A stretch of DNA of 47,673 nt, taken from Clostridiaceae bacterium (GTDB taxonomy: Bacteria > Bacillota > Clostridia > Saccharofermentanales > Saccharofermentanaceae). The position numbers and the translations under genes are program-made. The notes under the pieces were generated by a model. It was given only the letters and a program-made list of their open reading frames with translations. It ran no database searches and was not told the DNA's origin. The DNA is taken from positions 1 through 47,673 of the forward strand of contig JAAYCT010000019.1 in the NCBI GenBank assembly GCA_012729635.1. The letters run 5' to 3'. The number at the start of each line of letters is the position of its first letter. Positions within the stretch are counted from its first letter, which is position 1. Below are positions 27,651-29,314 of the stretch, in pieces.

Positions 27651-28931
27651 TTACGTAGGTTCCTGACGTTTAGACGGGCATCTATGGGACGCCGTCTTGA
27701 TTGTTTTCATGCCGCTTTTTTCGCTCCCCGCACGCATGGCATAATACGCTGATACAAGCGGCACATATCCCATTCTCTGAAGCTCCGAGTACGGAAGGTT
27801 CTTATAGTTTTTTTTGGTATGCCGTCCGGTTTCCAGATAACGAAGCATGGATTGCATATATGAATCGATTTCCCGTAAATCATCCGCGTCACTGATCAGC
27901 GGGAAATACCATCGGCTCCACGTTAATTCATCGTCCCGGTCTCCGGTTCCGAAAAATTTGAATCGAAATTTACGAATCATCGCGCGGACGGCCCGTTCCG
28001 TAGAAGCCTCTTTGCGCACCTTCCACCGGTACAGCTTTCTGGCCGCTCGCGAGATTTTCCCCTTCATTTTGCGAACGGATGCTTCCGACAGTCCGATTCT
28101 TCCGGCCCGATAGGAAAGCCCCAAAAATTCCCAGCCCTCACCCGGGGACACGACGACGGATTTTTCCTCGTTGCGGCAAAGACCGTGAAGCAAAAGCGCC
28201 TTTTCAATTCTGTCCCACAGACTTTTCACTTCCCCGGGGTTGCAGAAAAAAATCATATCGTCCGAGTATCGTGCATATACCGGCGCCCAGGTAACGGCCT
28301 CCCGATCAAAATCCGTAAGATACAGGTTCGCCAGTAACGGAGAAAGCGGCATGCCGGCCATAATCCCTTTACTTTCATCCCGAACGACCCGTCCTTTTTC
28401 ACGCACCCGATCATTACGAAGCATGGCCGTAACGGATGCCGCCACGCCCGGCTCCCGCTCCAGTGCATCCGTAAGAATCCGAACCATGCGTTCCACCGGC
28501 ACGCTGTTAAAATAATTCCGGATGTCGATTCGTATGCATGCGTAATCCGGGCGGTAGCGCAAAACGACGGATCGAAAAGCGGCGCGGATCGAAAAACCCG
28601 GCCGAAACGCCAGACAGCACGGGGACAGCCCGATCTCCGTTCGTGCCAGACAGTAATGAACGGCCTTGAGCATCAGGCGATCGGTGTCCGGATACACATA
28701 GACCACACGCTTCTTGTCGCTTCCGAGTTTACGGATTTGAACCCTTTCCGGAAGATCCGGGGTACCGATTCCTCTTACAAAGGCTTGCGCGCGATCCAAA
28801 ATTGCATCGACACAGGGAAACGCCGACTCCGCCGCATCCTCAAAAAATCGGTGTCTCCGTTTTTCCTTTTCGATTTCCTCCGCAAGAAAAGTCGAAACCT
28901 CCTCCTGCCGAAGCATCTGATCTGCATCCAT
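27651..28931 (-). CDS. Stand-alone reverse transcriptase (unclassified)
   Basis: A 426-residue RNA-directed DNA polymerase. The motifs in order are an AFRPGFSIRAAF finger block (108-119), catalytic Asp136 in RIDIRNYFNSV, AGMPLSPLLANLYL (192-205), the catalytic YSDD at 222-225 and FLGLSY near 269, followed by a basic helical thumb and an X-like region of 150 residues. The core is complete and looks active. YSDD in place of YADD, and AGMPLSP in place of QGxPLSP, set it apart from standard group II maturases; no HNH, maturase zinc or En domain is present. It lacks the retron NAxxH pattern and the diversity-generating SQ variant. It resembles the stand-alone RTs often found in defence (UG/DRT-type) loci. 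Start ATG at 28931 after AAAGGGA. A structured non-coding block precedes it. Confidence 0.88.
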   Translation of the reverse strand: MDADQMLRQEEVSTFLAEEIEKEKRRHRFFEDAAESAFPCVDAILDRAQAFVRGIGTPDLPERVQIRKLGSDKKRVVYVYPDTDRLMLKAVHYCLARTEIGLSPCCLAFRPGFSIRAAFRSVVLRYRPDYACIRIDIRNYFNSVPVERMVRILTDALEREPGVAASVTAMLRNDRVREKGRVVRDESKGIMAGMPLSPLLANLYLTDFDREAVTWAPVYARYSDDMIFFCNPGEVKSLWDRIEKALLLHGLCRNEEKSVVVSPGEGWEFLGLSYRAGRIGLSEASVRKMKGKISRAARKLYRWKVRKEASTERAVRAMIRKFRFKFFGTGDRDDELTWSRWYFPLISDADDLREIDSYMQSMLRYLETGRHTKKNYKNLPYSELQRMGYVPLVSAYYAMRAGSEKSGMKTIKTASHRCPSKRQEPT

Positions 28932-29314
28932 CTGATGATCCCTTTTTGCATAATTGTGATATCGAGGGAAAAGCCTTCGTCCGTCGCGGATATGCGCCGA
29001 TTACGAAGGCTTGAATTTCGGGGTTTTCGGCCGTAAGAAGCGTTGTGAAATTGCTGTAAGCAATACCGGAGTGAACCCGAACGCCCTTCCTTCAAAGTCC
29101 GTATCGGTCCGGGCTTCCCCCATTCGAAGGAACAACCAGAGTTGTATCTTGGCCGCTACCCTTATCCCAGATCAATTATATCACCCGTCACCCAATATTG
29201 CATCGACCCGACACCGGATACGTCGATACCGACGATACGCCTTCTCGCACACTCACTCCGTTAAATCAAGGGATGAACGTGCGGTTCTCCGTACGGCGAA
29301 CGTGAAAACCTTCG
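28932..29314 (-). ncRNA. Hairpin-rich non-coding region directly upstream of the RT
   Basis: Between the rhodanese stop and the RT start, 383 bases carry no convincing gene. Read on the RT strand, several stems are visible: a perfect 10-bp arm pair AAGCCTTCGT/ACGAAGGCTT (29003-29012 with 28971-28980); ATTGCT/AGCAAT around a 3-base loop (29050-29064); CAAC/GTTG around TCTG (29133-29144); and CCTTCGAA and GAAGG arms flanking 29080-29130. Near 29279-29296 is a 7-bp GC-rich hairpin whose one wobble pair works only on the plus strand. Bacterial RTs of retron, DRT and RT-associated types use such adjacent RNAs as template or primer. A functional RNA here is inferred. Confidence 0.45.

What the first reader, a model, noticed from the sequence alone, without database searches (positions are those of the whole stretch)
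27651..29314. Stand-alone reverse transcriptase with a structured RNA-like block upstream
The RT core is complete (Asp136, YSDD 222-225) but departs from group II maturases (AGMPLSP, YSDD, no En or HNH domain), from retrons (no NAxxH) and from diversity-generating RTs (SP, not SQ). The 383 bases before it on the same strand have no gene but several perfect stems, one being a 10-bp arm pair 40 bases before the RT start. Established knowledge: many such RTs in retron and DRT loci work with an adjacent non-coding RNA as template. A defence or other retro-system is the inference.
Basis: partly seen in the sequence, partly recalled or inferred. Interest (0 to 1): 0.8.

Follow-up and report, generated by a model that had tools for sequence, protein, structure and literature searches.

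The report
UG26 reverse transcriptase with partner RNA
This is a bacterial reverse transcriptase of a catalogued but apparently untested group (UG26) together with its own structured partner RNA, probably a small machine that copies part of that RNA into repetitive DNA, most likely for phage defence.

Summary
The gene at 27651-28931 (-) is a complete reverse transcriptase (RT). It belongs to the UG26 group of UG/DRT RTs (361.8 bits; next best, UG17/DRT10, 109.7), not to intron maturases, retrons or DGRs. The "gene-free block" before it contains a real noncoding RNA at 29020-29161 (-), a divergent member of Rfam RT-5. Relatives show covariation, including a closing stem and a pseudoknot. The RNA accompanies nearly every UG26 RT examined; in 13 loci it lies 1.2-8.7 kb upstream on the same strand, so it acts in trans and is not a leader. 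Its 3' single strand, between the last hairpin and the closing stem, is where DRT10 keeps its telomerase-like template, and short direct repeats (A-B-A') are moderately enriched there across UG26 RNAs. In the window itself that repeat is only 3 nt. Most likely it is a Class 2 DRT-like, RNA-templated maker of repetitive cDNA. Defence is inferred, not shown. The window clade lacks the COG2852-type partner, and the window's family carries UG26 in 79 of 115 genomes.

The parts
27651..28931 (-). UG26-group reverse transcriptase, 426 aa, catalytic Asp136 and YSDD 222-225, thumb/C-terminal helices, invariant Tyr381
29020..29161 (-). noncoding RNA core, closing stem to closing stem (divergent RT-5 type)
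29036..29135 (-). match to Rfam RF03026 RT-5 (44.6 bits, gathering 45.7)
29175..29183 (-). extended -10-like element TGATATAAT; TGnTATAAT is present in all five members of the window clade
   Evidence: conservation; the generic promoter scan found no full sigma-70 site
29147..29161 (-). P1 5' arm (GGGTAGCGGCCAAGA), pairs with 29020-29038
   Evidence: sequence differs but pairing is kept in L092-L095
29020..29038 (-). P1 3' arm (TCTTACGGCCGAAAACCCC)
29132..29145 (-). P2 hairpin ACAAC-TCTG-GTTGT
29126..29131 (-). pseudoknot strand PKa (TCCTTC)
   Evidence: 5 of 6 pairs change on both sides within the window clade
29088..29093 (-). pseudoknot strand PKb (GAAGGA), in the loop inside P3
29068..29121 (-). 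P3 stem with internal loop, enclosing PKb
29050..29064 (-). P5 hairpin ATTGCT-TAC-AGCAAT, identical in the five window-clade RNAs
29037..29049 (-). putative template between P5 and P1: A-B-A' = TTC-ACAACGC-TTC (10-nt unit)
   Evidence: position by analogy with DRT10; a 3-nt repeat alone is not beyond chance
   Evidence: also formed in L094 and L095

Best explanation
A two-component Class 2 UG (DRT-type) system. A UG26 reverse transcriptase binds a separately transcribed ~140-nt RNA of the RT-5 family. It copies a short single-stranded template, between the RNA's last hairpin (P5) and its closing stem, into repetitive cDNA, realigning on a short repeat as in DRT10 and telomerase, probably primed on a protein side chain. 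The cDNA or the RT-RNA-cDNA particle then serves anti-phage defence. Shown here: RT group, RNA identity and structure, co-occurrence, trans arrangement, purifying selection in relatives. Supported but not shown: the template position and the repeat mechanism. Inferred: RNA binding, priming, and the defence role.
For: UG26 HMM 9e-109. Tree: UG26 is one clade (98/91), apart from group II, UG2 and UG27; the window's RT with two relatives is a deep branch of it. RT-5 in the window (E 1.2e-6) and above the curated cut-off in four relatives. RNA covariation: 33 of 48 pairs change on both sides, 0/500 shuffles; window clade 0/500 on covariation score. RNA found by model R1 in 72 of 79 family genomes with the RT; five of the other seven are the window clade, whose RNA R1 is too narrow to find; only 1 of 73 RNA-positive genomes lacks the RT. 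RNA 1.2-8.7 kb upstream, same strand, in 13 loci. dN/dS about 0.1 in relatives. Catalytic residues invariant. Solved Class 2 DRT structures (DRT2 Z 21.1, DRT9 Z 20.9) are among the fold matches. A-B-A' enrichment: 11 of 49 RNAs with 5 nt or more vs 3.4 expected; within-locus vs re-paired P = 0.03 for all 49, 0.003 for 27 representatives. Class 2 DRTs use cis-encoded ncRNA templates for tandem-repeat cDNA (PMC13174585), with the DRT10 template next to the last stem-loop (PMC12632851).
Against: No cDNA, RNA or phage data. In the window A-A' is only 3 nt, which chance often gives (33.5 of 49 expected at 3 nt or more). The representative set was my own choice. Several UG26 RNAs show no repeat longer than 2 nt. 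The window clade lacks the COG2852-type partner genome-wide, no neighbour is a known defence gene, and the near-fixed carriage and fixed position in some genera are unusual for a defence gene. Best fold matches are group II RTs (Z 26.9), so the fold does not separate the classes. Model R1 does not find the window RNA at E 0.1.
Confidence: 0.6

Rival explanations
1. Same RT-RNA machine, but the cDNA serves a resident, non-defence function in this bacterial family (for example regulation or chromosome biology).
For: 79 of 115 family genomes carry one copy, against 16 of 391 in the class sample; fixed chromosomal neighbourhoods within genera; purifying selection in relatives; no defence gene near the window copy.
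Against: In another large family it is patchy, 16 of 120 genera. The family's own UG26 RTs fall in several separate branches of the tree, so it was probably acquired more than once. UG26-like RTs occur in viral contigs. All characterised relatives known to me are defensive.
Confidence: 0.15
2. A DRT2-like use of the RNA: the RT copies most of the RNA, possibly by rolling circle, so that the cDNA becomes an expressed gene.
For: DRT2 is also a Class 2 UG RT, and the RNA ends are paired in a closing stem. UG26 matches the Drt2 profile weakly (64.3 bits).
Against: The 3' single strand is short and the core is highly structured; A-B-A' enrichment points to a short local template. No search for an open frame across a joined RNA was made.
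Confidence: 0.1
3. A retron-like element making msDNA, with P1 playing the a1/a2 repeat.
For: The RNA ends pair as a1/a2 do, and a structured RNA lies beside the RT.
Against: No NAxxH and no VTG-like motif; retron model 63.6 bits against a cut-off of 235; a UG26 model fits far better; RNA up to 8.7 kb away.
Confidence: 0.04
4. A domesticated group II intron maturase with intron remnants.
For: Best solved-structure matches are group II RTs.
Against: No intron RNA by Rfam, no maturase domain, 95.2 bits against a cut-off of 300, separate clade in the tree.
Confidence: 0.02
5. The RNA is a cis-acting leader or attenuator of the RT messenger.
For: In most loci it lies directly upstream on the same strand, and in the window a terminator-like hairpin follows it.
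Against: In 13 loci it is 1.2-8.7 kb away with mostly opposite-strand genes between; conserved pseudoknot architecture across families.
Confidence: 0.04

Closest known systems
UG26 RTs (PADLOC PDLC03764, catalogued DRT-type, function apparently untested)
   Same: Profile match over 47-400 of 426 aa at 361.8 bits; same clade in the tree; same upstream RNA family.
   Different: The window clade is a deep branch, 26-36% identical to UG26 RTs outside its own clade, and lacks the upstream COG2852-type gene.
RT-5 RNA (Rfam RF03026)
   Same: All main stems of the model match.
   Different: The window RNA is just below the curated cut-off; closing stem P1 and the pseudoknot described here are not in the model's structure line as shown.
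DRT10 (UG17 RT + SLATT + ncRNA)
   Same: Second-best RT profile; ncRNA with a single strand beside the last stem-loop; A-B-A' pattern in many UG26 RNAs.
   Different: Different RT group, no SLATT gene, weaker repeat, product unknown here.
DRT9 (UG28 RT + ncRNA)
   Same: Two-component RT + ncRNA; 3'-proximal template; fold match Z 20.9.
   Different: DRT9 has a conserved U-rich template; the UG26 single strand is variable.

Membership tests
UG26 reverse transcriptases | Best match to the UG26 profile, well above other RT groups | tested here: met
   361.8 bits vs 109.7 for UG17
UG26 reverse transcriptases | Falls inside the UG26 clade in a tree with other RT groups | tested here: met
   98/91 support
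UG26 reverse transcriptases | Adjacent COG2852-type gene (PDLC03793): frequent, not defining | tested here: not met
   Absent genome-wide in G000, G778, G779, G774, G775; also absent in other clear UG26 genomes such as G583 and G450, so it is not a defining feature
Class 2 UG/DRT systems | Cis-encoded structured ncRNA | tested here: met
Class 2 UG/DRT systems | ncRNA-templated repetitive cDNA | not testable with these tools
   Needs cDNA sequencing
Class 2 UG/DRT systems | RT-dependent phage defence | not testable with these tools
   Needs plaque assays
RT-5 RNA (RF03026) | Score at or above the gathering cut-off | tested here: inconclusive
   Window 44.6 vs 45.7; close relative L002 46.9, others 58.5-85.1
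DRT10 (UG17) | UG17 RT | tested here: not met
   UG26 fits far better
DRT10 (UG17) | SLATT partner gene next to the RT | tested here: not met
   Nearest neighbours are rhodanese and Na/Pi cotransporter genes; no PADLOC model among neighbours apart from unspecific ATPase matches of an ABC transporter
DRT10 (UG17) | A-B-A' template beside the last stem-loop | tested here: inconclusive
   Present but 3 nt in the window; group enrichment moderate
Retron | NAxxH and VTG-type motifs; retron model cut-off | tested here: not met
Group II intron maturase | Intron RNA around the ORF, maturase domain, model cut-off | tested here: not met
DGR RT | SQ in motif 4 | tested here: not met
   AGMPLSP; no SQ in the protein

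The most novel reading that the evidence does not exclude
A telomerase-like RT-RNA pair that has become a resident, partner-free cellular machine in one clostridial family, making constitutive tandem-repeat DNA for a role other than, or beyond, phage defence.
Probability: 0.12. Interest if true: 0.85.

Novelty: new member of a known kind. Interest (0 to 1): 0.52.

Why it matters
UG26 is catalogued, but I found no functional study of it in the library searched. Tying it to the RT-5 RNA, with a covarying pseudoknot, a named template candidate and a predicted repeat for each locus, turns an orphan RT group and an orphan RNA family into one testable system. If the A-B-A' prediction holds, telomerase-like repeat synthesis extends beyond DRT10 to another Class 2 group, one that can lack any known effector gene.

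Tried and rejected
Retron, group II intron, DGR and leader-RNA readings were tested and set aside. Single-sequence folding energy gave no support (z -1.5). A generic promoter scan found nothing, although TGnTATAAT is conserved. A first A-B-A' test with crude halves gave P about 0.02-0.04; it was repeated with better anchoring and shuffles. Relatives were not found in phages or plasmids at E 1e-20, and the wider searches there gave only distant RTs. No R1 RNA was found beside the viral UG26-like RTs. The only UG17 relative obtained (L230) is one long branch and joined the group II rows, so the tree does not settle UG17's position. Mestre 2022 and Weinberg 2017 are not held, so whether they already link UG26 with RT-5 could not be checked. 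The upstream partner's predicted fold gave only weak matches, mostly to PD-(D/E)xK nucleases (best Z 6.3).

Full report
What is there. The ORF at 27651-28931 (-) encodes a 426-aa reverse transcriptase with Asp136 and YSDD at 222-225. Pfam sees RVT_1 only. It is the only RVT_1 match in the genome. Among PADLOC models the UG26 RT fits at 361.8 bits (E 9e-109), the next being UG17 at 109.7. Group II, retron and Drt models of NCBIfam all stay far below their cut-offs. In a 53-row tree the UG26 rows form one clade (98/91) separate from group II, UG2 and UG27 RTs. The window RT with L092 and L094 is a deep branch inside it, and a set of viral UG26-like RTs is sister to the rest. The single UG17 row is a long branch whose place is unsure. 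AlphaFold2 gives a confident RT model (pLDDT 88). Its best solved matches are group II RTs (Z 26.9), followed by G2L4, DGR, DRT2 (Z 21.1) and DRT9 (Z 20.9), so the fold shows an RT with thumb but does not decide the class.

The RNA. Rfam RT-5 (RF03026) matches 29036-29135 (-) at 44.6 bits, E 1.2e-6, slightly below its cut-off. L002, L005, L006 and L007 score above the cut-off. Reading the upstream regions of relatives extends the RNA to a closing stem P1 that joins its two ends. In an 18-sequence alignment of other UG26 loci, 33 of 48 pairs change on both sides, and none of 500 shuffles reaches the observed covariation. A 7-bp pseudoknot between the strand after P2 and the loop of a hairpin inside P3 is formed in 99% of cells. 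MAFFT misaligns P5, whose pairing is therefore undercounted there. In the five-species window clade the pseudoknot changes on both sides in five of six pairs and P2 in two of five, while P5 and its flanks are invariant. P1 pairs in all five despite different sequence. A TGnTATAAT element precedes the RNA in all five. Energy alone would not have revealed the RNA (z -1.5).

One RNA per RT. Model R1, built without the window clade, gives 55 matches in fetched UG26 loci at E 1e-5 or better, and L095 at 0.026. It also finds the RNA in 17 further loci. Across the 115 genomes of the window's family, 79 carry a UG26 RT and 73 an R1 match. All but one of the 73 (G795) also have the RT. The RT-positive genomes without an R1 match in that scan are the five of the window clade, where the RNA is seen by alignment, and G861 and G877, whose loci do match R1 when searched with looser filters (L097, L099). 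Of 51 loci with RNA and RT coordinates, the RNA is always on the RT's strand and upstream. In 13 it lies 1.2-8.7 kb away, behind genes mostly on the other strand. It is therefore an independent, trans-acting RNA.

Partners and distribution. Many UG26 loci have, just upstream of the RNA, a small gene that PADLOC calls RTasCOG2852. Its predicted fold resembles PD-(D/E)xK nucleases weakly (Z up to 6.3), and the usual catalytic ExK is not evident in the alignment. It is absent from the whole genomes of the window clade and of some other UG26 carriers. The window's neighbours are housekeeping or transport genes such as a rhodanese and a Na/Pi cotransporter, with no specific defence model. Gene order around the RT is conserved within genera. 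dN/dS is about 0.1 both in loci with and without the partner beside the RT; the window clade itself is saturated at synonymous sites. UG26 is frequent in the window's family (79 of 115) but patchy elsewhere: 16 of 391 in the class sample, 16 of 120 genera in one large family. The family's UG26 RTs fall into several branches, which suggests repeated acquisition followed by stable keeping.

How it probably works. Class 2 UG RTs studied so far copy a short part of a cis-encoded ncRNA into tandem-repeat cDNA (PMC13174585). DRT10 does so through an A-B-A' template just 3' of the last stem-loop, with protein priming near the C-terminus (PMC12632851). That UG26 belongs to Class 2 rests on its profile kinship and on established classification as I know it. 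The corresponding place in the UG26 RNA is the 3' single strand between P5 and P1. There, direct repeats occur in many RNAs: TTCTTTC-AAAG-TTCTTTC (L147), TGTTTC-AAAGC-TGTTTC (genus g478), GGATTT-AA-GGATTT (L140), CGATTT-AA-CGATTT (L126). Eleven of 49 RNAs reach 5 nt or more against 3.4 expected from shuffles. Matching within a locus exceeds re-paired halves with P = 0.03 for all 49 and 0.003 for a representative set chosen by me. These sequences are related, so the P values are optimistic. In the window the pattern is TTC-ACAACGC-TTC; the other four clade members also have TTC at both ends with a variable middle, but 3 nt is within chance. Tyr381 is invariant near the C-terminus and is a candidate primer; this was not tested.

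Judgement. RT group and RNA: very likely (about 0.95). RNA as template: likely (about 0.8). Telomerase-like repeat addition: about 0.5. Defence: likely by kinship, untested. A resident non-defence role cannot be excluded. The find is a divergent and partner-free member of a known kind. Its value lies in joining UG26 to RT-5 with a specific template prediction; whether that link has been published could not be checked, since two key papers are not held.

Noticed in passing
L078, L080, L112, L113, L115, L116, L118, L119, L121, L123, L125, L127, L128: In one branch of genus g268 the RT-5 RNA and its UG26 RT have been pushed apart by 1.2-8.7 kb of mostly opposite-strand genes, yet keep strand and order.
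   Followed up: partly
L150-L154 (viral contigs): A clade of UG26-like RTs in viral contigs, sister to the cellular UG26, without a recognisable RT-5 RNA within about 6 kb.
   Followed up: partly
L156, L160, L161, L162, L168 (viral contigs): UG27 RTs in viral contigs form the neighbouring clade to UG26; whether they have an RNA of their own was not examined.
   Followed up: no
L006:5037-5651, L005:2-1564, L087:9995-10549: The COG2852-type partner varies in its N-terminus (zinc-ribbon-like, long coiled coil, or a short MGxFxKLFG start) with one shared C-terminal domain that looks like a nuclease fold with degenerate catalytic residues.
   Followed up: partly
L135 and L149 (genome G927): One genome carries two different UG26 systems, each with its own RNA.
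   Followed up: no
window 29046-29073 (-): CACTCCGGTATTGCTTACAGCAATTTCA is nearly identical in five species whose RTs are only 48-67% identical to the window's; P5 varies freely in other UG26 RNAs, so this clade seems to have an extra constraint there.
   Followed up: no
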